64,000 nt of DNA from positions 28,788-92,787 of the forward strand of contig SHMQ01000006.1 of the NCBI GenBank assembly GCA_008534395.1. Reading direction: 5' to 3'. Below are positions 1,554-45,905 of this stretch, piece by piece. Numbering within the stretch: position 1 is the first letter of the stretch; each line of letters opens with the position of its first letter. The position numbers were made by a program, and so were the translations under genes. Below the pieces are notes generated by a model. It saw only the letters and a list, made by a program, of their open reading frames with translations, ran no database searches and was not told the origin of the DNA. This DNA is from Candidatus Acidulodesulfobacterium acidiphilum. GTDB lineage: Bacteria > SZUA-79 > Acidulodesulfobacterales > Acidulodesulfobacteraceae.

Positions 1554-1695
1554 AATATTTTACCTCTCGTATGTAACTTAATAAATAATCTTAATTTCCG
1601 ATTTTAGGGAAAACCTAAATATTCAATTTTATGAAATTAATTTCATTCAGTTTACTGCGAAACCGGAATTTATTTACATAAATAATCTATACTGC

Positions 1696-2574: not shown

Positions 2575-2599
2575 ATTTTTTAATTTCTCCTTTAACTTT

Positions 2600-3148
2600 T
2601 TACTCGAAATCCTTAAAAATTTTTGCTATTTGATTTAAGCCTGAAAGATTTTCTCCGTGCATTTTAAGTTTTCCTTTTTCAAACATTTTTGGAGCCAAAA
2701 ACATATCTCTGAAAAGATGTTTTGTTTTTAATTTATATTTGCCGACCAATTCAAGTTCGAAAATTCTTCCGTGCGACTTGACGTTTTCCAGAAAAACTTC
2801 GTGAAACATCTGTACTTCTTTTTCCGTTTTTGAAGTTATTCCTTTTCTTTCGGCTATTTCCCTAAGAACGTCCATTATTCCGGTAACTTCAAATCCTTTC
2901 GGACATCTGGTCGAACAGGTATTGCACGAAACGCACAGCCATATCGTTTTAGAATTTAAAACGGTATCTTCCATTCCAAGTTCGGTCATTTTTATAATCT
3001 GGTTTGGAGTATAATCCATTTCAAAATTAACGGGGCATCCCGCCGAACATTTGCCGCATTGATAGCACTTGGATAGTTTGTCGTGCAGCATAGACTCGAC
3101 CTGTGCGACAAAATTCCGCCTGTTTTGTTCATTTAAAACCGTTTTCAT
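2600..3148 (-). CDS. hdrC: HdrC-like heterodisulfide reductase subunit C
   Basis: 182-residue ferredoxin-type subunit that links HdrA to HdrB. Two classical [4Fe-4S] motifs are visible: CYQCGKCSAGCP (C28, C31, C34, C38) and CVSCNTCSTRCP (C72, C75, C78, C82). The remaining C-terminal half is helical in appearance, as in HdrC of this size. It has no membrane segments, so this is the soluble HdrABC type, not HdrDE. It is the first gene of the hdr operon, about 95 nt downstream of a good minus-strand promoter at 3249-3277. Confidence 0.93.
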   Translation of the reverse strand: MKTVLNEQNRRNFVAQVESMLHDKLSKCYQCGKCSAGCPVNFEMDYTPNQIIKMTELGMEDTVLNSKTIWLCVSCNTCSTRCPKGFEVTGIMDVLREIAERKGITSKTEKEVQMFHEVFLENVKSHGRIFELELVGKYKLKTKHLFRDMFLAPKMFEKGKLKMHGENLSGLNQIAKIFKDFE

Positions 3149-20985: not shown

Positions 20986-21471
20986 TTACTTTCTTTTATA
21001 CGTTCCGCTTTTTCCGCCTTCTTTGCTTATAAGGTAAATATCAGATATTTCTATGGATTTATCCGCAGCCTTCAGCATATCGTAAACGGTAAGCGCCGCT
21101 ACGGATACGGCCGTCAAGCTTTCCATTTCTACGCCGGTTTTTCCCGATATTTTAACGGAGGATATTATATTGATAGAATTTTCTTTCTCGTCCGTTTTAA
21201 ACAAAATATCGCATCCTTCTATATTTAAAGGATGGCATAAAGGAATTAATTCCGACGTTTTTTTAGCCGCCATAATTCCGGCTATCTTTGCAGTTCCGAA
21301 GACGTCTCCCTTTTTTCCTCCTCCGCCGGTCGCAAGTTTAAAAGCTTCTTCCGACATAGTAACTTTTGCATGGGCGGAAGCTATTCTGACCGTGCCGTTT
21401 TTTTCAGACACGTCAACCATTTTAGGCATTCCGTTTTCGTCCAGATGAGTCAGCTTTGTTTCTTTTTCCAT
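20986..21471 (-). CDS. moaC: MoaC, cyclic pyranopterin monophosphate synthase
   Basis: 161 residues, full length. MoaC turns 3',8-cyclo-7,8-dihydro-GTP, the MoaA product, into cyclic pyranopterin monophosphate in molybdenum cofactor synthesis. Seen are MVDVSEK near the N-terminus, the substrate-binding LIPLCHPLNIEGCDI, TGVEMESLTAVSVAALTVYDMLKA, and the C-terminal GGKSGTYKRK. It is separate from moaA (36225) by 15 kb, so Moco genes are dispersed: moaC here, mobB at 29162, and moeA, moaA and mobA near 35-38 kb. Confidence 0.96.
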   Translation of the reverse strand: MEKETKLTHLDENGMPKMVDVSEKNGTVRIASAHAKVTMSEEAFKLATGGGGKKGDVFGTAKIAGIMAAKKTSELIPLCHPLNIEGCDILFKTDEKENSINIISSVKISGKTGVEMESLTAVSVAALTVYDMLKAADKSIEISDIYLISKEGGKSGTYKRK

Positions 21472-30036: not shown

Positions 30037-30060
30037 TAATTGGAAAGGATAAAGGATAAA

Positions 30061-32391
30061 ATGGATATGGACAAAGAAATAAAAGGGCTATCGTCTTCCG
30101 AAGCCGAAGAGTTAACTAAAAGGTACGGCTTAAACGAAATAAAAGAGAAAAAAAAGCATCCGGTTGAAATTTTTCTATTAAAATTTTGGAATCCTGTAGC
30201 ATGGATGCTGGAGTTTACTTTTATAATCGAATTAATATTAGGAAAAAACATAGAAGCATATATTATTATCGGTTTAATCTTATTTAACGCTATTATATCG
30301 TTTCAACAGGAGAACAAGGCGGAAAAAGCTCTGGAGCTTTTAAAAAAACAGTTAAAAATTATATCAAAGGTTTTAAGGGATGGAAAGTGGATCAAATTAA
30401 GCGCCGAACAATTAGTTCCAGGCGATATAATTCATGTAAGAATGGGTGATTTGGTTCCGGCGGATACCGAAATTATTTCCGGAAACGTATTGGTCGACCA
30501 GTCGGCATTAACCGGAGAATCACAGCCGGTGGACAGAAACGAAGGCGGACTTATATATTCCGGTTCAGTCATTAAAAGAGGGGAAGCCACCTGCAAGGTT
30601 ACGGCGACCGGAGAAAAAAGCTATTTCGGGAAAACGGCGGAACTTATAAAATCGGCAAAAACTAAGGGTCACATAGAAGAATTAATTCTAAAAATCGTAC
30701 GCTATTTTATTATGATTGACGGCATTCTCGTAGTTTTAATACTTGCATACGCCCTTATATACAAATTGAATTTTGCCGAAATGCTGCCTTTTGCTTTAAT
30801 CCTCTTAGTAGCGTCTATACCGGTCGCCCTGCCGGTTACTTTTACTTTGGCTACGGCGCTTGCTTCTATGGAACTTGCAAGCAGGGGAATATTGGTAACG
30901 CATCTTTCTGCAATAGAAGATATTGCCTCTATGGAAGAATTATGTTCCGATAAAACAGGCACATTAACGGCAAATAAACTTTCTCTTACAGCTTTTAAAC
31001 CGCTTGAACCTTTCGGCGAAAATGAACTTTTTGCATACGCAGCGGCGGCATCGGACGAGTCTACGCAGGACCCGATAGATTTATCCATACTGTCTTATAT
31101 AAAAAACAATAAATTAAATCTGCCTGAAATAGGAAAAACAGTTAAATTTATACCTTTTGACCCGCAGACTAAAAGAGCCGAAGCAGTAATGGAAACATAC
31201 AAAAACGGAGAAAAAAATTTAATAACGTCCATAAAAGGTTCTCCTATAATAGTCGCAAAAAATTTGGATGAAACCGGAGCTAAAATATTGTCGGAAGAAT
31301 CGGAAAAATTAGAGGCTATGGGGTATCGGGTAATAGCTGTAACGATAAAAAACGAAGAAAATAAATATTTTCCGGTGGGAATCCTTGGACTGTCCGACCC
31401 TCCAAGGGACGACTCTAAAGAACTGCTAAAAGAACTTAAAGATTTAGGAATAAGGGTTAGAATGGTAACCGGCGATACGGAGCTTACGGCTAAAACGACT
31501 GCCCGCTTAATAGGACTTGGAGACGGCGTATGCACGAAGGAAAAATTTAAAAATCCATCCGGTTGCGATGTGTTTGCGGGAGTTTTCCCTGAAGACAAGT
31601 TTCATCTCGTACAGGGTTTGCAGAAACTAAAAAAGATTACAGGAATGACCGGCGACGGAGTAAACGATGCGCCTGCGCTTAAACAGGCGGAGGTCGGCAT
31701 TGCCGTAGCTAATGCTACGGACGTTGCAAAGGCATCGGCTAGCCTGATATTGACGGAACCGGGTCTTGCAAATATCGTGGATGCCGTAAAATACGGCAGA
31801 ATGGTATACAGGAGAATGCTTACTTATACTTTAAATAAAATATCAAAAACCTTTCAGGTTGCTCTTTTTTTGAGTTTAGGTCTTATATTTTTCGGGAAGT
31901 TCGTTACTACCCCGAAACTTATTCTTATACTGATTTTTGCTAACGATTTTGTAACTATGTCCATAGCTAAAGACAATGCCGTATATTCCAATAAACCTGA
32001 TAAATGGAAAATAAAACTTATAGTATCGGCATCTCTTATAATAGCAGGGGCATGGCTGATTTATTCTTTTATTTCATATTATATAGGATATTACGTTATA
32101 GGAATGAATATGCCGGAGGTTCAAACGTTTGCATTTTTATCGCTTGTATTCAGCGCACAGGCGACGGTATATTTAGTAAGGGAAGAACGTCATTTCTGGA
32201 GTTCTAAACCGGGAAACTATTTAATGCTGGCAAGCGCTTTAGATTTAATAATTATAACTTTAATGGCCGGTTTCGGCATACTTATGGCTAAAGTTCCTTT
32301 CACATATATATTTATACTGCTTGTTGCAACTTTTATTTATATGGTTGCATTAGACTACGTCAAGAAACCCCTGATGGAAAAACTCAGATAA
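30061..32391 (+). CDS. P-type plasma-membrane H+-ATPase (P3A type)
   Basis: 776 residues from ATG 30061. A TTG at 30040 would add seven residues, but AAGGAT before 30061 favours the ATG. Short N-terminal cytoplasmic part (GLSSSEAEELTKRYGLNEI), the actuator motif DQSALTGESQPV, the phosphorylation site CSDKTGTLTANKLS, KGSP for ATP binding, VTGDTELTAKTTARLIGL and the hinge MTGDGVNDAPALKQAEVGIAV are all present, with about ten membrane helices. The length and motifs match proton-exporting P3A ATPases known from plants, fungi, archaea and some acid-tolerant bacteria. A role in pH homeostasis is inferred. It is flanked by family-B repeats. Confidence 0.92.
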   Translation: MDMDKEIKGLSSSEAEELTKRYGLNEIKEKKKHPVEIFLLKFWNPVAWMLEFTFIIELILGKNIEAYIIIGLILFNAIISFQQENKAEKALELLKKQLKIISKVLRDGKWIKLSAEQLVPGDIIHVRMGDLVPADTEIISGNVLVDQSALTGESQPVDRNEGGLIYSGSVIKRGEATCKVTATGEKSYFGKTAELIKSAKTKGHIEELILKIVRYFIMIDGILVVLILAYALIYKLNFAEMLPFALILLVASIPVALPVTFTLATALASMELASRGILVTHLSAIEDIASMEELCSDKTGTLTANKLSLTAFKPLEPFGENELFAYAAAASDESTQDPIDLSILSYIKNNKLNLPEIGKTVKFIPFDPQTKRAEAVMETYKNGEKNLITSIKGSPIIVAKNLDETGAKILSEESEKLEAMGYRVIAVTIKNEENKYFPVGILGLSDPPRDDSKELLKELKDLGIRVRMVTGDTELTAKTTARLIGLGDGVCTKEKFKNPSGCDVFAGVFPEDKFHLVQGLQKLKKITGMTGDGVNDAPALKQAEVGIAVANATDVAKASASLILTEPGLANIVDAVKYGRMVYRRMLTYTLNKISKTFQVALFLSLGLIFFGKFVTTPKLILILIFANDFVTMSIAKDNAVYSNKPDKWKIKLIVSASLIIAGAWLIYSFISYYIGYYVIGMNMPEVQTFAFLSLVFSAQATVYLVREERHFWSSKPGNYLMLASALDLIIITLMAGFGILMAKVPFTYIFILLVATFIYMVALDYVKKPLMEKLR

Positions 32392-32393
32392 AC

Positions 32394-32504
32394 ACAGGGT
32401 CAGAATTCAATTCTGGCCCTGTCACAAATCGGAAAGTAAGGGGCAGAATTCAATTCTGACCCTGTCGCAAACTGGAAAATTGGAAAACAGGGACAGAATT
32501 TAAT
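32394..32504. repeat. Cluster of three family-B repeats
   Basis: Copy one, 32394-32422 (ACAGGGTCAGAATT to AATTCTGGCCCTGT), begins 3 bp after the ATPase stop. Copy two is 32439-32463 (AGGGGCAGAATTC to AATTCTGACCCT). A third half copy, ACAGGGACAGAATTTAAT (32487-32504), follows. The spacers also resemble one another (CACAAATCGGAAAGT and CGCAAACTGGAAAAT). The first hairpin could slow transcription out of the ATPase gene, though no U-tract follows. Confidence 0.75.
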
Positions 32505-32694
32505 GCCCGATGCTTAATGCGTAGTTGACGTATTTTATGAATTCTTCTTTCGTGGGGTAATTTTTAACGCCGATGTTAAAAACCTTCCTTTTCTTTTCAT
32601 ACCACTTATCGAAATTTTCGGAAGATACGGAGCGCACTTCTATTAATAATTCTTCCAGTAAAACGGTAAGAGGTTTTTCGTTTTCGCTATTCAT
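32500..32694 (-). CDS. Small hypothetical protein (64 residues)
   Basis: 64 residues, acidic N-terminus and mixed helical sequence (LTVLLEELLIEVRSVSSENFDKWYEKK). No motif recognised. Codon use and composition look like real coding sequence of this genome. The stop codon (32500-32502) and last residues lie inside a family-B repeat, so the original C-terminus may have been altered by the repeat. It is upstream-adjacent to no other minus-strand gene for over 2 kb. Confidence 0.5.
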   Translation of the reverse strand: MNSENEKPLTVLLEELLIEVRSVSSENFDKWYEKKRKVFNIGVKNYPTKEEFIKYVNYALSIGH

Positions 32695-32810: not shown

Positions 32811-34136
32811 TTACCGCCAGTTAGTCCTTGAAAATTCTGGAAGGTCTTCGAAATCTCCCCTTATGGCATAGCCTTCATTTATATTGTATATTTCAAATTC
32901 GTTATCTATTACGAATGAATATATGTTGCCGTTTAAAAATTCGTCTTTATATTTTAGGCATTTTAATCCCTGTCTTATAATTGCCGATAATATTCCGCTG
33001 CCGGAAATATCGCCTAGTAGTATAGCTCCTACGAGTACTTCTCCATCATATACTAATTTTCTGTAAATCTTATCGTCTTGAAATACGTAAACATTCTGCG
33101 TTTCGTTAGAAGGATTGGTTAAACCTATAGTTACTATAGGAAGTCCATAAATTTCGACGGAATTTAAACCCATACCGCCAGGATATTCTCTGTAAACGCC
33201 CGCCATATTCGTGCCTGCAACCCTTCCTTCTTCACAGGCAAGCGGAACTATGGCTATTATATTTGGACGCTTGTTTATAACGTCATATATTACGGCGGCG
33301 TCCCCTCCGGCATATACGTCCTTAACGCTCGTCATCATAGTTTTATCTACTATTATGCCTCTGTCTATTTTTATTCCGCTGCCTTCAAGAAATGCAACGT
33401 TAGGCCTGACGCCTACACCGACTACTACGATATCCGCAGGCAATTCTTTCCCGCTTTTCAATAATACGCTGACGGGATTACCGGACTCGTCTAAATTAAT
33501 TTTTGTGACAGTTTCGCCCGTAGCAGTATCTATGCCGTTTTCGTTCAGTTTTTTTGAAGTAATATTTCCTGATACTTCGTCGAGGGCAAGTCCTAGAACT
33601 CTCGGCAACAATTCTACTATCGTCGTATGAAGGCCTAATGCCCTTAGACCTTCGGATGCTTTAAGCCCTATAAGCCCGCCGCCTACGACTATCGCTTCTT
33701 TTCTTTTAGACATTTTTGCGGCTTTTTCCATTTTTTTTGCGTCGTCGAATCGAGTAAAAGTACCCATCATTGGAGAATCGGGGTTAAATCCTTCCGTCGG
33801 CGGTATAAAAGGCGTTCCGCCGGGACCTATAAAAAGTTTGTCGTAATTCACGGCCGCTCCGTCATCCAAAACTAACCTTTTAGCCGAAGTATCTACTGAA
33901 ACTACTTTTTTCCCGAGCATTAAATCGAAATTATTTTTTTCGTAATAATCGTCTTCTTTATACCATATTGTTTCGTCTGTAGTTTTTCCTTCCAAATAAT
34001 ATGAAATCAAAGGCCTTGCATAAGCCCTGTAGTTTTCGTCAGATATTATTACGACTTCTCCGGACTTGTCGAAACGCCTGATTGCATCGGCGCAGGATAA
34101 GCCCGCGTATGAATTTCCTATAATAACGTATTTCAT
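32811..34136 (-). CDS. FAD/NAD(P)-dependent oxidoreductase (NirB/rubredoxin-reductase-like)
   Basis: 441 residues. Two nucleotide-binding folds: FAD at YVIIGNSYAGLSCADAIRR and NAD(P) at EAIVVGGGLIGLKASEGLRALG, plus VYAGGDAA for the flavin ribityl. No redox-active CXXC is visible, so it belongs to the class that hands electrons to a separate carrier. The carrier is probably the four-cluster ferredoxin encoded 21 bp upstream (34158). Last gene of the moeA-moaA-ptps-mobA-ferredoxin run. It may connect the NAD(P)H pool to the molybdoenzyme; this is inference from context. Confidence 0.88.
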   Translation of the reverse strand: MKYVIIGNSYAGLSCADAIRRFDKSGEVVIISDENYRAYARPLISYYLEGKTTDETIWYKEDDYYEKNNFDLMLGKKVVSVDTSAKRLVLDDGAAVNYDKLFIGPGGTPFIPPTEGFNPDSPMMGTFTRFDDAKKMEKAAKMSKRKEAIVVGGGLIGLKASEGLRALGLHTTIVELLPRVLGLALDEVSGNITSKKLNENGIDTATGETVTKINLDESGNPVSVLLKSGKELPADIVVVGVGVRPNVAFLEGSGIKIDRGIIVDKTMMTSVKDVYAGGDAAVIYDVINKRPNIIAIVPLACEEGRVAGTNMAGVYREYPGGMGLNSVEIYGLPIVTIGLTNPSNETQNVYVFQDDKIYRKLVYDGEVLVGAILLGDISGSGILSAIIRQGLKCLKYKDEFLNGNIYSFVIDNEFEIYNINEGYAIRGDFEDLPEFSRTNWR

Positions 34137-34157
34137 AATCTTATCCCCTTTTTAATA

Positions 34158-34706
34158 TTACTTAACTATTGATTTTATATAAGGTCCGTATATTTTTTTT
34201 GCGACGGAAAGCCTTCTTTCATATGAATAATTTTTAATTCCTATTCTTTTTAACGCCCCTTTTTTACAGGCTTCTACGCATTTAGGGGTATCCTCGTCCG
34301 AACAGCCGTCGCATTTTGAAGCAAAATGGCCTTTTCCTATTCTTTCTATAGCTCCGAACGGACACGACATTACGCACATCCAGCATCCGACGCATTTTTT
34401 ATAGTTTGTTACCGTCCATCCCGATTCCAAGTCTTTATATCTTGCACCCGGCATACATGCATCGACGCATGGCGCTTCGTCGCAATTGTGGCATATCAGA
34501 GGGAAAAATTTGTTTCCTTTCTTTTTTATATTTATTCTGGCTCCAGTATATTTTGAGCCGTATTTTTCAGCCATATGCGATTCGCATGCTTTTACGCATG
34601 CCGCAAAACCTTCGCTTTCGCATCCGTCGCATTTTGAAGGATAGAGCATTATTTCTATTTGATTTTTCTTTAAATCTTCCTCTAAATTGGTAAGTTTTTT
34701 ACTCAT
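34158..34706 (-). CDS. Four-cluster ferredoxin-type electron carrier
   Basis: 182 residues. Four cysteine groups: CDGCESEGFAACVKAC, CHNCDEAPCVDAC, CVGCWMCVMSCP and CDGCSDEDTPKCVEAC. This is the DmsB/HycB/CooF arrangement of four [4Fe-4S] clusters. There is no signal peptide. It is encoded between mobA and an FAD oxidoreductase. It resembles the ferredoxin at 38739, so the locus has two related carriers, one at each end of the cofactor genes. Confidence 0.9.
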   Translation of the reverse strand: MSKKLTNLEEDLKKNQIEIMLYPSKCDGCESEGFAACVKACESHMAEKYGSKYTGARINIKKKGNKFFPLICHNCDEAPCVDACMPGARYKDLESGWTVTNYKKCVGCWMCVMSCPFGAIERIGKGHFASKCDGCSDEDTPKCVEACKKGALKRIGIKNYSYERRLSVAKKIYGPYIKSIVK

Positions 34707-34736
34707 AACAGCCTCTTTTTATTTTATTATTTTTGT

Positions 34737-35690
34737 TTACTTGCATATTTCTTGGCTAAATGCGCCTGCATCTCCTCGAATCGTTTTAATTAATTTTCCG
34801 CCCATAAAATCTAATCCGCCTGCGTAATATTTGTCGGCGTCTTTTTTAAAATAGCCGTATGACTTTTTTAAATATATGAAATTTCCCGTTTTTGAATATA
34901 TCCACCAATAATAAAGCGCGTTTGCAAGTATGCCCGACGGTTTTCCCGACGGATTTTTTACGTTGAAAAATCTGTTTGCCTTTCTTATTTTAACGCTTTT
35001 TGCGTATTTTTTTTTAACGGTATTAATTTTCTCCGCCAAGTAATTTTCAATATCTTCCTTAGAATTAATATTCATAAAAAATTCAATTTTTAAATCCGGA
35101 TTTTTTTTTATAATATCTAATATATTATAGTAATATACGGACGGCAAAAATCTTGAAATATTCACCGAATCCTTAAAAGGAAAATTTTTTTCTAGATTCA
35201 ACGCATAATCGTTCAGCATTTCTAAAACCGCAGCCGTCTTCTTTATATTATAAATTCCAAGGAGGGGTTCTACGGTGGAATCCGGCCATAAAGGCAGTAC
35301 CGCACCGACTTTCTCCTTCTCCATTTTTTTTATAAGTTCGTTTGCCGCCGAAAAATTAAATAAAGGCGCGTCGCACTCCATAACAAGGACATATTTGCCT
35401 TTAAGATGCTTAATGCAACTGTAAATTCCTCTAAGAGGCCCTATAAAACCGCAGTTTTTATCGTCGGCTATTGCATGCGGATTTATATTCAATTTTTTTT
35501 TTAATTCGTTGCTATACCGTTCTGCGCCTTCTTTATCTCTTGCCGAAATTATTATATCGCCGCTTAATTTTAATGCGGTTTCCGCCGCTCTTTCTATAAA
35601 CGATTTTCCATTAAAATTAAAAAAAGCTTTATTTTCTCCGAATCTTTTAGATTCGCCGCCGGCAAGTATTATACAGCTTAATTTTTGCAT
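34737..35690 (-). CDS. mobA: MobA, molybdenum cofactor guanylyltransferase with extra C-terminal domain
   Basis: 317 residues; typical MobA is about 190-210. The N-terminal ~220 residues are a MobA nucleotidyltransferase: CIILAGGESKRFGENKAF, a central VMECDAPLF with the metal-binding acidic pair, and PLWPDSTVEPLLGIYN. It transfers GMP to molybdopterin. The extra ~90 residues (from about residue 228, containing FFNVKNPSGKPSGILANAL and AGGLDFMGGKLIKTIRGDAG) match no domain I recognise. They are aromatic-rich and continuous with the reading frame, so this is a fusion or an extension rather than readthrough. Confidence 0.88.
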   Translation of the reverse strand: MQKLSCIILAGGESKRFGENKAFFNFNGKSFIERAAETALKLSGDIIISARDKEGAERYSNELKKKLNINPHAIADDKNCGFIGPLRGIYSCIKHLKGKYVLVMECDAPLFNFSAANELIKKMEKEKVGAVLPLWPDSTVEPLLGIYNIKKTAAVLEMLNDYALNLEKNFPFKDSVNISRFLPSVYYYNILDIIKKNPDLKIEFFMNINSKEDIENYLAEKINTVKKKYAKSVKIRKANRFFNVKNPSGKPSGILANALYYWWIYSKTGNFIYLKKSYGYFKKDADKYYAGGLDFMGGKLIKTIRGDAGAFSQEICK

Positions 35691-35715
35691 TTAATTAAAT
35701 AGCACGGCCGCAAAA

Positions 35716-36201
35716 TTATAATTCTATCTTTATTCTGCCTCTTTGGCCGTGGCCTTCGCTTAACGTAACTTCAAAATAATTTATTGGGTTAAACATTTCC
35801 CTGTTTTTTAAATCTGAGGCGAGTTCGCCTGCGAAATAAACCGTTAAATCTTCGATATTTAACGACGGACACTTTATTTTAAAAATATCGGCTTTCGGTA
35901 TAAGATACATTTTGCCGTTAATTTCTATCCTGTAATGCTGTTCTTCCACTGCAATGCGCTGAACGCTTTCAGGGTAATCGGCTATTAATATTTTATCCTC
36001 GAACGTGGAACATATTCTTTTTATAACGGCTTTTAAGTTATAAAGATGGACTATCCTTCTTTTATCGTCGAATTCTCCGTCGATTAAAACGTCCACGTAA
36101 TGAAAATGAGGATGTATTCTCGAACAATCTCCTCTTCCAGGCACTATATGCATGCATTCAAACGTTAATCCGGCTTCTTTTCCGTTAAGTTCGACTATCA
36201 T
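35716..36201 (-). CDS. QueD/PTPS-like protein with altered active site
   Basis: 161 residues. It has the zinc and cysteine pattern of 6-pyruvoyl-tetrahydropterin synthase/QueD proteins: H18, then C26SRIHPH with C26, H30 and H32 (CX3HXH), and a C-terminal VTLSEG with the conserved glutamate position. The Asp-His pair (LDHK in QueD) appears here as FEDK, so the catalytic histidine is replaced. A canonical QueD is encoded at 48384, so this copy is not needed for queuosine. It sits between a moaA-like gene and mobA, which suggests a pterin substrate, but the reaction is unknown. Confidence 0.7.
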   Translation of the reverse strand: MIVELNGKEAGLTFECMHIVPGRGDCSRIHPHFHYVDVLIDGEFDDKRRIVHLYNLKAVIKRICSTFEDKILIADYPESVQRIAVEEQHYRIEINGKMYLIPKADIFKIKCPSLNIEDLTVYFAGELASDLKNREMFNPINYFEVTLSEGHGQRGRIKIEL

Positions 36202-36224
36202 TTAATTTTATTTACCTCTAATAT

Positions 36225-37067
36225 TTAATAATAAAAATTTTTTAGAACGCCGTTGGGCAGAAGCCTCATGCCGCTGCATCTGTCTCCGGTAGATTTACAG
36301 ACGTCGTTTACCTTTCTGCATAGCGTTATTTTAGAATTTTTAATTTTAAAAAACTGTCTGTCATTAGTATCGTCGTTTAAAAAATCTAATCCCGCTTTCT
36401 TTAACGTTAAGTATGGGTCGGCATAAAACTTAGAATATGAAGTTTCGTCGGTTTCGTTAGATAATTCTATAAACTGCAAATCGAAATCGTTATTTATGCA
36501 ATAATCTATTAATTTGTTTAAAGACGATTTTGCGGAATTTATTTTTTTTAGCAAAACTGCATCTATTTCTACATTGTATCCATAATCTTTCAAAATTTTT
36601 AAACCTGAAAGAACTTCATATAGATAATCTTTTCCGGTAATATATTTATAAAACCTTGGATCTAACGTATCTAAGCTTACCGATATTTTATCTATAATAT
36701 TGGGGCTAAGATCTTTTATTCTTTTTCTTATAAGAGTGCCGTTCGTAGTAATATATAGCTTTAAGTCATTGATATGTTTGACTTTATATAAAAGATTTTT
36801 TAAATCTTTATAGAGCAGAGGTTCGCCGCCGGTAAATTTAATTTTTTTAAGTCCGAAATTTTTAAGCGAATATACGACGTTTATTATATCTCCGGTCTGA
36901 ATAGTCGAAGAAATTTTTTTGGGAACTCCTTCGTTATGGCAGTAAAAACAATTTTCGTTGCATTTGCCTGAAAGAGAAACTCTTAAGGACGGGATTTTAA
37001 ATTTAAATCTTTCGAAATTTGAATCGTATTCTTTATTTTCAAATAATTCAAATAAATACTGTTTCAT
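36225..37067 (-). CDS. MoaA-like radical SAM enzyme, atypical C-terminus
   Basis: 280 residues, shorter than MoaA (about 320-340). The radical SAM motif is CNENCFYCHNEG (C36, C40, C43), followed by KFTGGEPLLYKDL and VSLDTLDPRFYKYITG as in MoaA, which makes 3',8-cyclo-dihydro-GTP. The C-terminal cluster that holds GTP in MoaA has spacing CX2CX13C. Here the cysteines are C250, C257 and C264, the position of the last ligand is not Cys (NGVLKNFYY-stop), and the catalytic Gly-Gly tail is absent. It may be a MoaA variant or a related enzyme with a different product. Neighbours moeA and mobA favour the molybdenum pathway. Confidence 0.78.
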   Translation of the reverse strand: MKQYLFELFENKEYDSNFERFKFKIPSLRVSLSGKCNENCFYCHNEGVPKKISSTIQTGDIINVVYSLKNFGLKKIKFTGGEPLLYKDLKNLLYKVKHINDLKLYITTNGTLIRKRIKDLSPNIIDKISVSLDTLDPRFYKYITGKDYLYEVLSGLKILKDYGYNVEIDAVLLKKINSAKSSLNKLIDYCINNDFDLQFIELSNETDETSYSKFYADPYLTLKKAGLDFLNDDTNDRQFFKIKNSKITLCRKVNDVCKSTGDRCSGMRLLPNGVLKNFYY

Positions 37068-37079
37068 AATTATTTTGTA

Positions 37080-38369
37080 TTAATATTCTATTTCGTAATC
37101 GTTTAACGTAACGTCTATAAAAGTTCCGGCCTTTAAATTCGTAATATGCTCTTCCATAACAAAACTGCCGTCGGCTTTTATCATTGGACTTAATGACCTT
37201 GCGGCGGACGGAGGTTTAGGAGCGGATATTACTTCTGCATATAAAGAATCGCCGCTCTTAGTTAACTTAACCTGAAAATATTTTCTTATGCCTTCTTCTT
37301 TTATTATATCATTTTTTAAAGCGGCTTTAACGGAAGGGTATCTTTTATATAGGTCTTTATAGTTAGACATTCTTTGAATAACAGGCCTTACAAATAGGTC
37401 GAACGTAATAAGAACGGAATAAGGCCAGCCCGCAAGCGCAAAAATAGGCGTGCCGTTATTAAGCATGCCGAACGACGTCGGCTTGCCCGGAACTAATTTT
37501 ACTCCGTGGAATAATAATTTTCCGGTCTTTTCTATAGCGGAAGGAACTAGGTCGTAAAAGTTTTTTATCTCTTTATTTTCCAAAACCAAAAAACTGGCGC
37601 CCGTTCCACCGGTAGAAACAATAAGGTCGTATTTTGAAGACTCGTCGCTTTTTTTTAAAGTTTGCGTTAATTTTTCAAAGTCGTCTTCTACCGCTCCTAT
37701 TACTTCAGGTACGCCTCCGGCATCCGACACTAAAGACTTAAGAACCGTCGTATTTATATCGTATATTTTATTTGTTTTTAACTTTTTGCCCGGCGGCGTT
37801 AGTTCGTTTCCTCCGGACAATATTCCTACCAAAGGTTTTTTATAAACGGAAACCGAACTCATTCCTATTCCGGATAGGGCGGCAATATCGCAGAATCTTA
37901 TTCTATGACCTTTCTCAAAAAGAATTTCTCCAGCCTTAATGTCGTCCCCTATGGGAGATATATACGAACCTTTTTCGAATTTCTTTTTGTAAATCATATA
38001 TCCGCCTGCATATTCTTCTACGTCTTCTATTAATACCACGCTGTCTGCATTGGGAGGAATAGGAGCGCCCGTAGTTACGAAGGCGGCTTCTCCAGAATTA
38101 AGCGGTTTTATTTCTTTTGAATAACCTGCGGTTATTTGGTTTTCTACCCTGAATTTATTTATTTTTTTTTCTAAAAAATCGCTTGATATAACCGCAAAAC
38201 CGTCAACGGCCGATCTTATAAAAGGAGGAACTTCGTTTTGAGGAATTATATCTTCCGATATTATTCTGCCGAGAGAATCTTCGACGGAAATAATTTCGCC
38301 GTCCTTAATTTTTTTAATATTTTCTGCGGTAATATCAAGTAATGTTTTAACCGTTTTTTTATCTTGCAT
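37080..38369 (-). CDS. moeA: MoeA, molybdopterin molybdenumtransferase
   Basis: 429 residues. It inserts molybdate into adenylylated molybdopterin. Visible are ISVEDSLGRIISEDI, PPFIRSAVDGFAV, VTTGAPIPPNADSVVLIED, GDDIKAGEILFEKGHRI, SGGNELTPPGKKLKTNKIYDINTTVL and VPGKPTSFGML. The usual SGGVSVGD segment reads STGGTGASFL here, a mild variant. It is the first gene after the terminator at 38387-38428, so moeA, moaA-like, ptps-like, mobA, ferredoxin and FAD oxidoreductase may start from their own promoter or by readthrough. Confidence 0.94.
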   Translation of the reverse strand: MQDKKTVKTLLDITAENIKKIKDGEIISVEDSLGRIISEDIIPQNEVPPFIRSAVDGFAVISSDFLEKKINKFRVENQITAGYSKEIKPLNSGEAAFVTTGAPIPPNADSVVLIEDVEEYAGGYMIYKKKFEKGSYISPIGDDIKAGEILFEKGHRIRFCDIAALSGIGMSSVSVYKKPLVGILSGGNELTPPGKKLKTNKIYDINTTVLKSLVSDAGGVPEVIGAVEDDFEKLTQTLKKSDESSKYDLIVSTGGTGASFLVLENKEIKNFYDLVPSAIEKTGKLLFHGVKLVPGKPTSFGMLNNGTPIFALAGWPYSVLITFDLFVRPVIQRMSNYKDLYKRYPSVKAALKNDIIKEEGIRKYFQVKLTKSGDSLYAEVISAPKPPSAARSLSPMIKADGSFVMEEHITNLKAGTFIDVTLNDYEIEY

Positions 38370-38386
38370 GAAGTTTTTATTTTTTT

Positions 38387-38428
38387 AAACAATAACGGCC
38401 GTCGATAGTTTGACGGCCGTTATTGTTT
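38387..38428. terminator. Perfect long hairpin, probable bidirectional terminator
   Basis: AAACAATAACGGCCGTC and GACGGCCGTTATTGTTT form a perfect 17-bp stem around an 8-base loop. In the minus-strand transcript the 3' arm ends in a U-rich run (UUAUUGUUU), a rho-independent terminator shape. It separates the molybdoenzyme genes (38438-42969) from moeA and the cofactor genes. Confidence 0.75.
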
Positions 38429-38437
38429 AACGTTAAT

Positions 38438-38683
38438 TTAAAAATATGGTTCTATGGGATATGTTTTTATTCCTGCTTTTTTAATCGCCTTTAAAGCTTT
38501 TTCTTCTTCTTCTAAGCTTACGAATATAGTTGCATGGTAAGGCGTCACGCTTGCGACGTTTCTTCCCACAATATGAACGTTTTCTTTTTTTAATGCTTCT
38601 TCAGCCTTGTCGAAGTCTCCGTTTACATAATCGACTCTTATAGGCGCATTATACACGGTTCCAGACTTTAGTATCTCTGCCAT
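38438..38683 (-). CDS. Small conserved-looking protein of the molybdoenzyme locus (81 residues)
   Basis: 81 residues with alternating strand-helix pattern (APIRVDYVNGDFDKAEEALKK, ATIFVSLEEEEKALKAIKKAG) suggesting a small ferredoxin-like alpha/beta fold of the ACT type, without cysteines. It follows the ferredoxin gene by 55 bp and precedes a terminator, so it ends the molybdoenzyme transcript. A good ribosome-binding site (GGAGGT) lies just upstream of its ATG. Function unknown; possible chaperone or regulatory subunit by position only. Confidence 0.65.
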   Translation of the reverse strand: MAEILKSGTVYNAPIRVDYVNGDFDKAEEALKKENVHIVGRNVASVTPYHATIFVSLEEEEKALKAIKKAGIKTYPIEPYF

Positions 38684-38738
38684 AAATAACCTCCTTGTTT
38701 TATTTTTAATATTTTTACAAATATAGTCAAATATTTAA

Positions 38739-39395
38739 TTATCCGACTTTAACCTCGTTATCGGTGTCGTTTGCATTAGACGTTCCCATTTGGCTTGGAT
38801 TAGGAGCGACAAAACCGAATAAATGTTCCGTTAATTTTCTGGCGGTCTTTTCTCTGTCGATAGTCGATATTCTGTTTATATTACCGAACCATAATGCATC
38901 GGTCGAACACAAAGTTACGCATGCAGGTAAAAGTCCGACGTCGATTCTGTGTTTGCAGTAATCGCATTTCGTTACCTTTCCGGTCGCTTCGTTAAACTGA
39001 GGAGAACCGAAAGGACAAGCGTGTATGCAAGATTTACAGCCTATGCAGGTATTAGGGTCGTTAAATACGATACCGTCTGCTCTTTTCTGCATAGAACCTG
39101 TCGGACAGGCTTTTACGCATGCCGCATCGTCGCAGTGAAAACAGTTCATGGGAAGATAAACCGTTTTTAGTTGTCCTTTTTTAATAAAATATGGTCCAAC
39201 CTGTATAACCCTCATTCTGCGGGGCCCAACGGGAAGATTGTGTTCTTTTTTACAAGATACTTCGCAAGACATACAGCCTATGCATCTTTCTACATTTACT
39301 TTCATAGAATATTTTGGAGTGGAAGACTTCAGGGTAATCCTGGAAGCTCTTTCTTCTCCAAGGTGAACTCTATCAAATCCGTATTCCGAAGACAT
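38739..39395 (-). CDS. Four-cluster ferredoxin subunit of the molybdoenzyme (DmsB/PsrB type)
   Basis: 218 residues. Four cysteine groups: CIGCMSCEVSC, CFHCDDAACVKAC, CIGCKSCIHAC and CDYCKHRIDVGLLPACVTLC, the standard order of the electron-transfer subunit of DMSO-reductase-family enzymes. No Tat or Sec signal. It lies 110 bp after the catalytic gene. The usual third, membrane-anchoring NrfD/DmsC subunit is not encoded nearby, so the complex is probably soluble. Confidence 0.92.
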   Translation of the reverse strand: MSSEYGFDRVHLGEERASRITLKSSTPKYSMKVNVERCIGCMSCEVSCKKEHNLPVGPRRMRVIQVGPYFIKKGQLKTVYLPMNCFHCDDAACVKACPTGSMQKRADGIVFNDPNTCIGCKSCIHACPFGSPQFNEATGKVTKCDYCKHRIDVGLLPACVTLCSTDALWFGNINRISTIDREKTARKLTEHLFGFVAPNPSQMGTSNANDTDNEVKVG

Positions 39396-39505
39396 ATTTA
39401 TACTCCTATTTTTTATTTAAGTTAAATTTCTTTTAACATCCGGAAATTTGCGTTTTATTGTTTTTTCAATTAATTACTCACGCAAATTTCCGGTTAAATT
39501 TAATT

Positions 39506-42049
39506 TTAGTATTTACGAATATCGCAGGAAACAGGCGTACATTCGACCGGCTCTTTAAAATTAACAAGCTTTTTCCAGCCTATGCTAAGTTCATGATATT
39601 CTTTCCAGTGATTTTTCCATTTTCCGACGATAATATTTTTATCCTGGTGCTTAGGATCCCAAACTTCCGGAAATCTTTTCTGCAAAAATTCTAGCGTCTT
39701 TTTTGCTGTGGTATCCGGATCGGTATCGCCTTTTCTATAAACCCTGCAAAGGACGGCTTTAAATTGTATCTGTCCATAAACCGGGTCTTTTATAATATCG
39801 TCTATAACGGTATTAATAGATTCATATGGATGAAACGGCTGATATCTGTCAAACCCGAAGTTTGCCCATATTCCGTCTTCAGGTACCATTTCTGTTACCC
39901 ATGCCGGACCTTCAACCCATCCTCTGTCGTTTTCTACTATAACCATGTCTCCGTCTTCGATACCCATAACCGCTGCGGTAGTAGGATTTATCTCTATATT
40001 TCTGTCGGGTTCGAGTTCGTCGTTCCACGGCCACCAGTGGCCTCCTTCATGAAAGGACTGCGCTATTCTGGTAGTATTCAGTACTAACGGATACTTCTTG
40101 GCTCTTTCAAAATTTCCGAGAGGCGATTCGGAACCCTCAACCTGCGTAGGAACTTTGTACCAGCCAATTTTCTCCAAAGCTTCGGAAGCTAGTTCGATTT
40201 TGCCGGAAGGCGTCGGGAATCTCTTGTCGGATTCGGGATAATTTTCTCCTTCTTTATACATTATCCATTTACCCCTTAAAACGGCTTCGTCGTCTTGGAA
40301 AACAGCTTCTTCTTTCGACATTACGGGCCACATCAAACCGCCTTTCGGATTTTTTTCGGGATTAAGAAGTTCGTAAGTAATACCTCTTGTAAAAGATTCC
40401 TGTTCGTTAAAGAAATCGGTCATTTTAATTTCGTTTACTCTTCCTTTATCAGGACCTTCTTTATAATATCCCCACGGATTAAATTCGACTTTGTCGAAAT
40501 GTCCGGCTTTACCTTTAAGCCTTTTCGCAAGACCGTCGAAAACATCGATATCGGCTCTGTGTTCATGCTGATAAGGTATTATTTTATTGTGCCACTGAAG
40601 AAGCCTGTTGTTTCCGTGATGGCAAACGCTGTCTGTTTCTACTGAGATTGCTATAGGAAACGCGACATGACTAAACATATATGTATGGTTTGGATATATG
40701 GAAAGATGAATATTGATTATATTTTTCTTCATCGCTTCTTCCATTTTCCATGAATTCGGAAACTGCGGCAGGTGGTCGCCGTTCCATATAATGCCCTTAA
40801 CAGGATAGGGTTTTTCATACATCATCGCATTTATTATGCACGGTACCGAACTGTCTCCCCATGATATTAATTTGTCCGTTATCTGCGGTCTTTTAAAACC
40901 CGGCAGATCGTTCAAATCGTGTCCATAATTCAGAGGAGGACGGCAGTTATGCAGCCAGTTCCAGCCGCCGCCTTTTACGCCTATAGATCCGGTAAGAGCT
41001 AACAATGCCGCTATCGACCTGTTGACGTTGTTCGAGTTATATATCTGCGCAGTACCGAGATTTCCCGTTACGGATGCCGGTCTTGCCGAGCCGAATCTTC
41101 TTGCGGCTTCTATAATCATTTCCTTGGGAACGTATGTAAGTTTTTCGGCTCTTTCAGGCGTCCATTGGGCGCATTCTTTTGCATACTCTTCAAAACCTTC
41201 AACCCATTTATCGACAAATTCTTTGTTGTAAAGTTTTTCTTTTATTATGATATTGCCCATAGCTAAAAACAATATAGCGTCCGAACCCGAACGGATTCTC
41301 ATGCCTATATCGCATTTTGAAAGCGTTGCGTTAAAACGCGGATCGACGCCTATTAAAAATGCCCCGTTATCTCTTGCATCGAGAAGGTGGGTCATCGTAA
41401 TAGTTTCCTGCGCCGCCATATTTGTGCCGACTACAAGAATACACTTGGAATTTTTCCAGTCCTGAGTAGGATTCATAAGCCTGCCGAGTCCTTTTGCGCC
41501 GAAAACATAGTTCATAGAAACGCCGGGGCTTTCACAGCATATAGGTCCCTGTCCGTAAACGTTAGGCGTACCGAATATCCTGGCGAATCTTGCGCCGCCT
41601 TCTTTATTGCCGAACGAAGACCTTCCAGTCCTGAAAACAGTCAATGCCTCAGGGCCGTATTCGTCATGAAGTTTTATTAATCTTTCGGCCGCAAAATCAA
41701 GCGCATCATCCCATGAAACCCTTTTAAAATCGTCTGATAAAGATTTCCTTATCATCGGATGATGAACTCTTAGCGGGTCATACCACCATTGAATCTGTCC
41801 GACGCCTTTAGAGCAAAGACCGCCTCTGTTCTGGGGGTGTTCCGGATCTCCCATAACATCGACAATTTTGCCGTCTTTCAAGAATATTTTAAGACCGCAT
41901 CCGCTTTCGCACATATTGGTACAAGTGGAATAGCGTACAGTGTCGTATTCTTTCGTCGATTCCTGCGGACGATGATCAGGCTTTATTTTTATAAGCCTGT
42001 TATCTTTTACGCGCATGAACTTTTCGTTTTTTAACTCCTCAAAATCCAT
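39506..42049 (-). CDS. Molybdopterin oxidoreductase catalytic subunit (DMSO-reductase family, cytoplasmic)
   Basis: 847 residues. The N-terminal [4Fe-4S] motif is C43-X3-C47-X3-C51-X27-C79. The likely Mo/W ligand is a cysteine in PICCESPG (C171 or C172); most relatives have a CH pair here. Further family features are GGARFARIFGTPN, ILVVGTNMAAQE, GVDPRFNAT and a C-terminal MGIEDGDMVIVENDRGW in the MGD-binding domain. There is no twin-arginine signal, so it works in the cytoplasm. It shares a strand with a CCG protein upstream and a ferredoxin downstream. The substrate is not evident; the sequence is neither a clear formate dehydrogenase nor nitrate reductase. Sulfur-compound or acetylene-hydratase-like chemistry cannot be excluded. 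Confidence 0.88.
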   Translation of the reverse strand: MDFEELKNEKFMRVKDNRLIKIKPDHRPQESTKEYDTVRYSTCTNMCESGCGLKIFLKDGKIVDVMGDPEHPQNRGGLCSKGVGQIQWWYDPLRVHHPMIRKSLSDDFKRVSWDDALDFAAERLIKLHDEYGPEALTVFRTGRSSFGNKEGGARFARIFGTPNVYGQGPICCESPGVSMNYVFGAKGLGRLMNPTQDWKNSKCILVVGTNMAAQETITMTHLLDARDNGAFLIGVDPRFNATLSKCDIGMRIRSGSDAILFLAMGNIIIKEKLYNKEFVDKWVEGFEEYAKECAQWTPERAEKLTYVPKEMIIEAARRFGSARPASVTGNLGTAQIYNSNNVNRSIAALLALTGSIGVKGGGWNWLHNCRPPLNYGHDLNDLPGFKRPQITDKLISWGDSSVPCIINAMMYEKPYPVKGIIWNGDHLPQFPNSWKMEEAMKKNIINIHLSIYPNHTYMFSHVAFPIAISVETDSVCHHGNNRLLQWHNKIIPYQHEHRADIDVFDGLAKRLKGKAGHFDKVEFNPWGYYKEGPDKGRVNEIKMTDFFNEQESFTRGITYELLNPEKNPKGGLMWPVMSKEEAVFQDDEAVLRGKWIMYKEGENYPESDKRFPTPSGKIELASEALEKIGWYKVPTQVEGSESPLGNFERAKKYPLVLNTTRIAQSFHEGGHWWPWNDELEPDRNIEINPTTAAVMGIEDGDMVIVENDRGWVEGPAWVTEMVPEDGIWANFGFDRYQPFHPYESINTVIDDIIKDPVYGQIQFKAVLCRVYRKGDTDPDTTAKKTLEFLQKRFPEVWDPKHQDKNIIVGKWKNHWKEYHELSIGWKKLVNFKEPVECTPVSCDIRKY

Positions 42050-42084
42050 TTTTTTACCTCCGTTTTAATTAAAGTATTTTTATT

Positions 42085-42969
42085 TTATAACCGGCACTCT
42101 TCCGATATTAAGCTTTCTGATTCGACTTCGCTGCGGGATATATAGTTTAATAATTCCCCGCAATCGTCAATGTCAAGTATATAACCTATAAATTCTACCA
42201 ATCCTATTACGGGCGCAAATATATCAAGGTCGGACAATTTCATGCCGTCGTCAATATTTTTTTCGCACATGGAACAAACCGTGACTATATAGTCTGAATT
42301 TGTTTCGTCGGCTTTTTTATTTATCAGCTTGAAAAAATTATCGGCTATATTTGCGTTTTCAATTCTTTTAGAATGTATCGGGGTCATATTTTGCAATTTT
42401 TCGCCTCCACAACAATCATTGAAAATATTAACTTCGGCACCCATAATATTAAATATTTTTTTTAAAGATTCTATTTTAGCTTCGTTTTTATAACATCCGA
42501 CATAAAGAAGTATGGAGTTCCCTTTTATTTTTGACGGAACGGTTTTTAGCAGTTTGTCTTCGGTAGCGGCATCTGCAATTATATCGATAATATGAATTGC
42601 TCCCGTCTTTGAAGGATCCGACTCTTTAAGCATCGCATTAAACGGCCTAAGACTATAATCCGCCTGTTTTCTAAACATGGAATCGGAATTTATAAGTTTA
42701 ACGGATTCGTTTATCTGATTTACGCATACCGAACAGCCGGAATATAAAAAATTTTCGCCGCCATTCTGACATAAACCTAAATTTCTCAGGGGCATTACCG
42801 CTTTATTAAAAAAATCCGGCTTATAGTGCGATGGCGGAGCACCGCAGCAGTTCCATTCGGAAACCGGCTTAATATCTATATCTAATGCTCTAAAAATGTT
42901 TTCTATTTTTGTTTTAGGGTCGTAAGAATTTGCGCAGCCCGGAAAATAAATAATATGATTTTTCAACAT
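42085..42969 (-). CDS. CCG-domain (HdrB-like) protein of the molybdoenzyme locus
   Basis: 294 residues, HdrB length. Two CCG-type domains: IIYFPGCAN with CCGAPPSH and CSVC in the first half, CCGGEKLQN and CSMC in the second. It lacks membrane segments. It is 35 bp upstream of the molybdoenzyme gene and probably forms the first gene of that transcript. By analogy with HdrB and SdhE it may carry a noncubane cluster that exchanges electrons with a thiol/disulfide or with a quinone. It is the third HdrB-like protein of the window. Confidence 0.85.
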   Translation of the reverse strand: MLKNHIIYFPGCANSYDPKTKIENIFRALDIDIKPVSEWNCCGAPPSHYKPDFFNKAVMPLRNLGLCQNGGENFLYSGCSVCVNQINESVKLINSDSMFRKQADYSLRPFNAMLKESDPSKTGAIHIIDIIADAATEDKLLKTVPSKIKGNSILLYVGCYKNEAKIESLKKIFNIMGAEVNIFNDCCGGEKLQNMTPIHSKRIENANIADNFFKLINKKADETNSDYIVTVCSMCEKNIDDGMKLSDLDIFAPVIGLVEFIGYILDIDDCGELLNYISRSEVESESLISEECRL

Positions 42970-43600: not shown

Positions 43601-45022
<1,422 letters not shown>

Positions 45023-45059
45023 TTATAAATTGTCTGCTATACTCTCTATACTTATAAAA

Positions 45060-45905
45060 TTAAGCAGTTAAATTATGGTGTGCTTTCATATGGCAATCAT
45101 ACGAAGTTTTTTCTTCTTCCTTATAAAATTTAAGCCTGTTCATAAGGTTGTCGAAATCCACTAAATGCCCGTCGAAGTCGGGACCGTCTACGCAAGCAAA
45201 TTTTGTTTTATTGCCCACCAAAACCCTGCATGCACCGCACATTCCCGTTCCGTCTATCATAATTGGATTTAAACTTACGATTGTTTTTATGGATTTTTCT
45301 TTGGTTAGGTCGCTTACGGCTTTCATCATAATTACCGGACCGATGGCGATAACCCTGTCTATCTGTATTTTTTTATCGTAAATAAGGCTTCTTAAAACAT
45401 CTGTGACGATGCCTTTAGTACCGTAGCTTCCGTCGTTTGTAGCGGCAAGAACTTCACTGCTCGCCGATTTCATCTCGTCTTCCATCAAAAGAAGCTCTTT
45501 GTTTCTTGCTCCGATTATAGATATGACGTGATTTCCTTCCGCCTTCATAGCTTTGGCTATAGGATATATTGCCGCAGTTCCAAAACCGCCTCCGATGCAG
45601 ACTACGGTTCCAAATTTTTTTATTTCGGTAGGAACACCGAGAGGCCCTACTAAATCAACTAAACTTTCCCCGACGTTTAATTCGCTGAGCAGGTGCGTAG
45701 TTTTTCCAAGCGTCTGCACAAGTATAGTAATAGTTTTGTCGTTTTTGTCTGAACTTGCGATAGTAATAGGAATTCTTTCGCCGTTTTTATTTACCCTCAA
45801 TATGATAAATTGGCCGGGTAACGCTTTTAACGCAATATCCGGAGCCGATATATTGTATAAATTTATCCCTTCGCCGAGATTTTTCTTGCCGATTATTTGA
45901 TACAT
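45060..45905 (-). CDS. NfnA-like FAD/[2Fe-2S] NADH-binding subunit
   Basis: 281 residues. An FAD-binding barrel (PGQFIILRVNKNGERIPITI), an NAD-binding domain (GTVVCIGGGFGTAAIYPIAKAM) and a C-terminal [2Fe-2S] site with DGTGMCGACRVLV and FACVDGPDFDGH, as in dihydroorotate dehydrogenase electron-transfer subunits and NfnA. Together with the gene 43 bp downstream it would bifurcate electrons from NADPH to NAD+ and ferredoxin or the reverse, linking pools used by the HdrABC and molybdoenzyme systems. Confidence 0.9.
   Translation of the reverse strand: MYQIIGKKNLGEGINLYNISAPDIALKALPGQFIILRVNKNGERIPITIASSDKNDKTITILVQTLGKTTHLLSELNVGESLVDLVGPLGVPTEIKKFGTVVCIGGGFGTAAIYPIAKAMKAEGNHVISIIGARNKELLLMEDEMKSASSEVLAATNDGSYGTKGIVTDVLRSLIYDKKIQIDRVIAIGPVIMMKAVSDLTKEKSIKTIVSLNPIMIDGTGMCGACRVLVGNKTKFACVDGPDFDGHLVDFDNLMNRLKFYKEEEKTSYDCHMKAHHNLTA

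What the first reader, a model, noticed from the sequence alone, without database searches (positions are those of the whole stretch)
32811..42969. Self-contained cytoplasmic molybdoenzyme locus with its own cofactor genes
Seen: a single-strand run encodes a CCG protein, a DMSO-reductase-family enzyme without Tat signal, a four-cluster ferredoxin and an 81-residue unknown. After a terminator come moeA, a moaA variant, a PTPS variant, mobA with an extra domain, another four-cluster ferredoxin and an FAD/NAD(P) oxidoreductase. The membrane subunit typical of such enzymes is missing. Known: CCG proteins handle thiol/disulfide or quinone electrons in HdrB and SdhE. Inference: a soluble molybdenum (or tungsten) enzyme joined to a CCG module and a pyridine-nucleotide reductase, a combination I do not recognise as a characterised system.
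Basis: partly seen in the sequence, partly recalled or inferred. Interest (0 to 1): 0.75.

Follow-up and report, generated by a model that had tools for sequence, protein, structure and literature searches.

The report
Cytoplasmic molybdoenzyme linked to sulfur metabolism
A set of eleven neighbouring genes in an acid-loving bacterium encodes a soluble molybdenum enzyme of a family nobody appears to have characterised, and its relatives in other bacteria and archaea sit beside the genes for breathing or burning sulfur, so it is probably an overlooked enzyme of the sulfur cycle.

Summary
The host belongs to phylum SZUA-79 (Ca. Acidulodesulfobacterales). The MopB is 89-100% identical in 25 of 30 genomes of the phylum. 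The ten-gene order recurs in Sulfobacillus-type Bacillota. The core (MopB, ferredoxin, 81-aa gene, usually a TorD-type chaperone) recurs in Nitrospirae, Actinomycetota and, partly, Chloroflexota and archaea. All homologues form one tight clade (support 100), at most 31% identical to the reference enzymes, and lack the formate dehydrogenase histidine. New link: homologues lie beside dsrABCMK, aprA-qmoAB and LbpA/LipS genes; dsrA occurs in 18 of 34 MopB genomes outside the phylum against 26 of 356 in background. The second ferredoxin and FAD protein match AorA/AorC. Best reading: a soluble cytoplasmic sulfur-compound oxidoreductase exchanging electrons with NAD(P)H. Substrate and direction are inferred, not shown.

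The parts
42085..42969 (-). CCG (HdrB-like) protein, 294 aa, two complete Cys-rich CCG motifs (C12..CC41-42..C79xxC82; C159..CC186-187..C232xxC235)
   Evidence: PF02754 x2; all motif cysteines invariant between SZUA-79 and Sulfobacillus-type loci at ~25% identity
39506..42049 (-). MopB/DMSO-reductase-family catalytic subunit, 847 aa, no Tat signal, Cx3Cx3C...C Fe4S4 site, probable Mo ligand Cys171 in GQGPICCESPG
   Evidence: Pfam, alignments and tree, AF2 model pLDDT 77.7 with full MopB fold
38739..39395 (-). four-cluster ferredoxin 1 (FDX1), 218 aa, DmsB/PhsB-like electron-transfer subunit
   Evidence: PF13247; adjacent to MopB in nearly every locus that extends past MopB
38438..38683 (-). 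81-aa ACT-like protein, conserved motif PYHATI
   Evidence: no Pfam hit; next to FDX1 in the bacterial loci with enough flank; AF2 beta-alpha-beta-beta-alpha, pLDDT 64.9; Foldseek best hits are ACT domains of aspartokinase
38385..38430 (.). intergenic hairpin, terminator/attenuator-like
   Evidence: a different G+C-rich hairpin stands at the same place in most SZUA-79 relatives, often with a T-run
37080..38369 (-). MoeA-type molybdenum insertase
   Evidence: PF03453, PF00994, PF03454
36225..37067 (-). MoaA variant: radical-SAM Cx3Cx2C kept, second (GTP-binding) cluster ligands not conserved
   Evidence: PF04055; alignment A6, C-terminal Cys set absent in Sulfobacillus-type orthologues
35716..36201 (-). 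PTPS-fold variant: Zn histidines and Cys kept, catalytic Asp-His is Asp-Lys here
   Evidence: PF01242; alignment A5
34737..35690 (-). MobA with a conserved C-terminal extension (about 100 aa, no Pfam match)
   Evidence: PF12804; extension tested alone and aligned
34158..34706 (-). four-cluster ferredoxin 2 (FDX2), AorA-like
   Evidence: match to 8c0z chain C and HDCR HycB subunits
32811..34136 (-). FAD/NAD(P)H oxidoreductase, AorC/PadH-like
   Evidence: best solved match 8c0z chain E over residues 1-404; NF045765 PadH 284 bits, below its cut-off
32500..32694 (-).
   Evidence: hidden-Markov hits in nearly all SZUA-79 loci that reach past the FAD gene; hhalign 86.5% to the 76-82 aa genes upstream of MopB in L080/L081/L084

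Best explanation
The locus encodes a soluble cytoplasmic molybdoenzyme complex of an undescribed MopB clade, with its maturation genes. MopB (bis-MGD, one Fe4S4, Cys-ligated Mo) carries out a two-electron redox reaction on a small sulfur compound of the cytoplasmic Dsr/Apr/sHdr pathway, most likely an oxyanion such as sulfite or thiosulfate. Electrons pass between MopB, ferredoxin 1 (stabilised or regulated by the ACT-like protein), ferredoxin 2, the FAD protein and NAD(P)H, which is an AorA/AorC-type relay; in SZUA-79 and Sulfobacillus the CCG protein adds a thiol/disulfide (HdrB-like) branch. Shown: gene set, conservation, clade status, Cys ligand motif, relay homology, co-location and co-occurrence with sulfur genes. 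Inferred: physical complex, substrate, direction.
For: Conserved core in many phyla. Compact clade with support 100, at most 31% identical to references. Cys171 aligns with the polysulfide reductase ligand in the profile alignment. FDX2 and FAD match chains C and E of 8c0z. Sulfur context: dsrA, dsrB, dsrC, dsrM, dsrK, MOT1, MopB, FDX1 run on one strand in L071; aprA and qmoA/B near MopB in L059 (plus qmoC) and L064, qmoA/B also in L065 and L072; LbpA, LplA, LipS1, LipS2, MOT1, MopB in L082. dsrA above cut-off in 18 of 34 MopB genomes outside the phylum versus 26 of 356 in background. Genomes lacking dsrA (Sulfobacillus-type, G016, L082) hold a LipS1-type gene, and the window's genome itself has dsrA, aprA and LbpA-LipS1-LipS2. 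A TorD-type chaperone accompanies MopB in most other lineages.
Against: No substrate is demonstrated. In the SZUA-79 genome of the window the MopB locus is not next to dsr, apr or LbpA genes. MopB and DsrA are separable: G018 has dsrA without MopB, G016 and others have MopB without dsrA. Most Dsr organisms in the sample lack MopB. Background genomes are bacterial and related genomes are not independent. Sulfobacillus already has SoeABC-like enzymes (PMC4378227), so a sulfite role would be redundant there.
Confidence: 0.45

Rival explanations
1. Formate dehydrogenase / CO2 reductase of a divergent type, feeding NAD(P)H or an Hdr complex.
For: Best NCBIfam and PDB scores are to formate dehydrogenases; Hdr-linked formate dehydrogenases exist.
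Against: Score 280 against a cut-off of 666. The residue after the ligand Cys is Cys or Thr and then Glu, never the catalytic His. The window's genome has a separate true formate dehydrogenase, L001, 839 bits. A TorD-type chaperone is the usual companion.
Confidence: 0.07
2. NAD(P)H-dependent sulfur/polysulfide or DsrC/LbpA-persulfide reductase (or oxidase): a zero-valent or protein-bound sulfur substrate rather than an oxyanion.
For: Same sulfur context; Cys ligand like PsrA; HdrB-like CCG protein suits disulfide chemistry.
Against: PhsA model 230 against 694; the adjacent CCG gene is absent from most lineages of the clade.
Confidence: 0.22
3. Reductase of another oxyanion (arsenate, selenate, nitrate) or an organic-substrate hydroxylase/dehydrogenase, with the sulfur neighbours coincidental.
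For: MopB enzymes are versatile; AorA/AorC and PadH/PadI relays serve aldehyde and aromatic enzymes; many conserved Trp/His in motifs likely to line the pocket.
Against: Three independent co-locations with sulfur genes and strong dsrA enrichment; no aromatic-degradation or ars genes noticed in the clade loci.
Confidence: 0.18
4. Catalytically dead scaffold, like the cofactor-less Molybdop protein of archaeal Hdr clusters (PMC12054007).
For: Hdr-type neighbours in some lineages.
Against: Mo-ligand Cys171 invariant and Fe4S4 cysteines near-invariant; moeA, mobA and MOT1 genes recur beside the enzyme.
Confidence: 0.03

Closest known systems
MopB/DMSO-reductase superfamily (cytoplasmic formate dehydrogenases, PsrA/PhsA, NasC/NapA)
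   Same: Full domain set, Fe4S4 site, Cys ligand, fold (best VIA Z 38.9, 655 residues, rmsd 2.5)
   Different: Own clade, at most 31% identity to the references tested; CCESP ligand motif; no equivalog cut-off reached
AorABC aldehyde oxidoreductase of Aromatoleum (8c0z) and PadHI
   Same: Ferredoxin plus FAD/NAD(P)H relay proteins
   Different: Catalytic subunit is MopB, not an AOR-family tungsten enzyme
HdrB / SdhE / DsrK CCG proteins
   Same: Two complete CCG motifs expected to bind non-cubane [4Fe-4S] clusters
   Different: Below all equivalog cut-offs; paired with MopB and no HdrA/C in the run
MOLY cluster of sulfur disproportionators (PMC12998232)
   Same: MopB + Fe-S subunit + TorD chaperone, sulfur context
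   Different: MOLY enzymes are described as likely extracellular; this one lacks a Tat signal; sequences not compared here
SoeABC / SreABC
   Same: MopB enzymes of sulfur metabolism (SoeABC faces the cytoplasm)
   Different: Those have a membrane subunit; none here

Membership tests
MopB/DMSO-reductase superfamily | Molybdopterin, Molydop_binding and Fe4S4 domains above gathering scores | tested here: met
   112.4, 67.4 and 53.9 bits
Formate dehydrogenase | Sec/Cys ligand followed by catalytic His | tested here: not met
   CCESP or CTESP in the aligned clade members, CH/UH in references
Formate dehydrogenase | TIGR01591 curated cut-off | tested here: not met
   280.5 vs 666.25 bits
PsrA/PhsA thiosulfate-polysulfide reductase | PhsA model cut-off and membrane (NrfD-type) subunit | tested here: not met
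   230 vs 694 bits; no membrane subunit in the run
PsrA/PhsA thiosulfate-polysulfide reductase | Cys ligand to Mo at the PsrA Cys position | tested here: met
   Cys171 aligned with the PsrA Cys; sequence alignment only
Assimilatory/periplasmic nitrate reductase | NasC/NapA model cut-offs | tested here: not met
   188.5 vs 1100 and 83-91 vs 904-931 bits
HdrB-type CCG protein | Two CX(n)CCGX(n)CXXC motifs | tested here: met
   invariant across two phyla
AorABC | AorA- and AorC-like electron relay | tested here: met
   8c0z chains C and E
AorABC | AOR-family catalytic subunit in the operon | tested here: not met
   no such domain in the run
MoaA (GTP 3',8-cyclase) | second [4Fe-4S] cluster ligands at the C-terminus | tested here: not met
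   Cys set not conserved in alignment A6
MOLY cluster | Tat-exported MopB | tested here: not met
   no twin-arginine motif in the N-terminus
MOLY cluster | orthology with MolyA | not tested
   no MolyA sequence at hand

The most novel reading that the evidence does not exclude
A new route in the cytoplasmic sulfur pathway: a soluble Mo enzyme that interconverts sulfite and sulfate (or cleaves/forms thiosulfate) with direct NAD(P)H coupling, working with DsrAB, Apr-Qmo or sHdr-LbpA, and in acidophiles fitted with a MoaA/PTPS variant pair that may make a variant pterin cofactor.
Probability: 0.2. Interest if true: 0.85.

Novelty: new variant of a known kind. Interest (0 to 1): 0.62.

Why it matters
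If right, organisms running Dsr or sHdr sulfur metabolism carry a cytoplasmic molybdoenzyme that current maps of the sulfur cycle omit. The clade signature (GQGPICCESPG, GWNWLHN) is easy to use as a marker, and the compact gene set is expressible and testable.

Tried and rejected
Formate dehydrogenase reading: rejected on the missing His and the curated cut-off. PTPS variant as a MoaC replacement: rejected, the genome has canonical moaC and moaA. PTPS relatives in other phyla (13 genomes, weak): nine were inspected and none lies beside MoaA or MopB, so the pair is specific to this cassette. Closest plasmid hits (Nostoc, Streptomyces; about 27-29%) form a separate branch; the Nostoc one has a Tat-like signal. 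Structure searches gave the general MopB fold without a single nearest function. The literature held does not describe the locus in Sulfobacillus AMDSBA1 or Acidulodesulfobacterales as far as searched; the library is not exhaustive. Metagenome collection not available.

Full report
OBSERVATION. Both ferredoxins carry sixteen cluster cysteines. The MopB lacks an RR motif and the run has no membrane subunit. An 11th gene of 64 aa (32500-32694) belongs to the run: it is conserved in the phylum and is related to a 76-82 aa gene directly upstream of MopB in three MAGs labelled Rhodobacteraceae. Between the 81-aa gene and moeA lies a strong hairpin; a hairpin of different sequence stands at that place in most relatives, often followed by a T-run, so it is probably a real attenuator or terminator-like element.

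HOST AND CONSERVATION. The window lies in a 2.09 Mb genome of a phylum with 30 held genomes; named relatives are isolate SZUA-79 and Ca. Acididesulfobacter diazotrophicus. MopB is found in 25 of 30 genomes at 89-100% identity. Two more (G006, G009) have the PTPS gene, so their MopB may be lost in assembly gaps. Within the phylum MopB, FDX1, FDX2 and FAD change slowly, whereas CCG, MoaA-v and MobA change fast, which points to MopB plus relay as the functional core.

RELATIVES. A sample of 356 bacterial genomes outside the phylum held one homologue at E <= 1e-90 (55% identity), already with FDX1 and the 81-aa gene downstream. A scan of genome contigs with the alignment gave 59 loci: SZUA-79, Sulfobacillus-type Bacillota, Nitrospirae, Thermoleophilia/Gaiellales, Chloroflexota, MAGs labelled Rhodobacteraceae, and archaea (mainly Hydrothermarchaeota). 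The scan used the peptides GWNWLHN and RGKWIMY, so members without them would be missed. The ten-gene order is kept in SZUA-79 and Sulfobacillus-type loci. MopB-FDX1 stand together in nearly all loci that extend past MopB; the 81-aa gene follows in the bacterial ones with enough flank; the Hydrothermarchaeota-type loci have a second FDX1-like ferredoxin and TorD instead; TorD-type chaperones follow in most non-SZUA lineages; FDX2-FAD accompany in several; MoeA-MobA are divergent neighbours in many archaeal loci; MOT1 molybdate transporters stand beside in others.

FAMILY. No curated MopB model is reached. In a tree with FdhF, FdnG, NapA, NasC-type, DmsA, PsrA, HDCR FdhF and the genome's own paralogues, all homologues form one compact clade with support 100 and a long stem; identities to references are 22-31%. 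PsrA and HDCR FdhF entered only as the aligned fragments printed. The Fe4S4 motif has Cx3C like DmsA, the ligand motif is GQGPICCESPG, and the formate dehydrogenase His is absent. The AF2 model (pLDDT 77.7, pTM 0.83) has the full MopB fold without singling out one function. The 81-aa protein is modelled with moderate confidence (pLDDT 64.9) as an ACT-like fold.

ACCESSORIES. FDX2 and FAD match chains C and E of the Aromatoleum aldehyde oxidoreductase complex 8c0z, an NAD(P)H-linked relay. The CCG protein keeps both complete CCG motifs across two phyla. MoaA-v keeps the radical-SAM cysteines but lacks the second cluster set. PTPS-v keeps Zn ligands and Cys but has Asp-Lys for Asp-His in SZUA-79. 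Since canonical moaC and moaA exist elsewhere, these two are additions whose role is unknown.

SULFUR LINK. In Chloroflexota L071, dsrA, dsrB, dsrC, dsrM, dsrK, then MOT1, MopB and FDX1 lie on one strand within 12 kb; dsrA and dsrM score below their curated cut-offs, dsrB, dsrC and dsrK above. In Nitrospirae L059, aprA-qmoA-qmoB-qmoC precede MopB by about 4 kb; L064 has aprA and qmoA/B, L065 and L072 have qmoA/B, all with a CCG protein in the latter three. In marine Anaerolineales L082, LbpA-type proteins, LplA-type ligases, LipS1, LipS2 and MOT1 precede MopB, a gene set known from sHdr sulfur oxidation (PMC10332631 by its abstract; own knowledge). dsrA over the curated cut-off occurs in 18 of 34 MopB genomes outside the phylum against 26 of 356 background genomes (odds ratio 14, p about 1e-10, not corrected for relatedness). 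Those without dsrA include the Sulfobacillus-type genomes and SZUA-79 G016, which carry a LipS1-type gene (several score just below the cut-off), and Sulfobacillus is known to have Hdr-like sulfur oxidation clusters (PMC4378227). The window's own genome has dsrA and aprA on one contig and LbpA-LipS1-LplA-LipS2 on another. Published work treats SZUA-79 as capable of sulfate reduction and perhaps sulfide oxidation (PMC6776010 as cited in PMC7596348; PMC10591310).

MECHANISM. Shown: genes, conservation, clade, ligand motif, relay homology, sulfur co-location. Inferred: a soluble complex MopB-FDX1-ACT handing electrons through FDX2-FAD to or from NAD(P)H, acting on a small sulfur compound in the cytoplasm. 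Sulfite or thiosulfate is the first guess because these are cytoplasmic intermediates shared by Dsr, Apr and sHdr routes (own knowledge); polysulfide or protein persulfide is the main rival. Direction cannot be told.

VERDICT.

Noticed in passing
window 1-3148 and L122 (G000:C6:19000-32500): HdrC-HdrB-HdrA(660 aa)-MvhD-like plus further Fe-S and FAD/NAD-type genes: an HdrABC-Flx-like electron-bifurcation cluster about 39 kb from the MopB locus, on the same strand.
   Followed up: partly
L123 (G000:C31) and L124 (G016:C3): Two LbpA-like (GcvH-like) genes with LipS1, LipS2 and a ligase in the window's genome, and a similar set in G016; the window's genome also has dsrA and aprA, so it seems to hold two cytoplasmic sulfur routes.
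   Followed up: partly
window 43601-45905: Nfn-like pair (281 and 471 aa) just upstream of the CCG gene; adjacency is kept only in the closest relatives (L032-L034).
   Followed up: partly
window 20986-21471: Canonical moaC lies in the same window, outside the locus.
   Followed up: yes
window 30040-32391: P-type ATPase resembling plasma-membrane proton pumps (783 aa), convergent with the locus; fits an acidophile.
   Followed up: no
L057 and L086: One single-cell assembly (Altiarchaeales WOR_SM1_SCG) holds two distinct MopB loci on contigs with coverage 23 and 3689; contamination by a Nitrospirae-like genome is likely.
   Followed up: no
L063, L069-L078, L087, L090: A conserved ~100-aa gene of unknown family sits between two FDX1-type ferredoxins in many archaeal loci.
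   Followed up: partly
L060-L062, L083: A 750-800 aa VWA-domain protein follows the 81-aa gene in Nitrospirae loci, perhaps a maturation factor.
   Followed up: partly
L047:17376-17914: FDX2 is split into two ORFs (frameshift or assembly error) in the SZUA-79 isolate.
   Followed up: no
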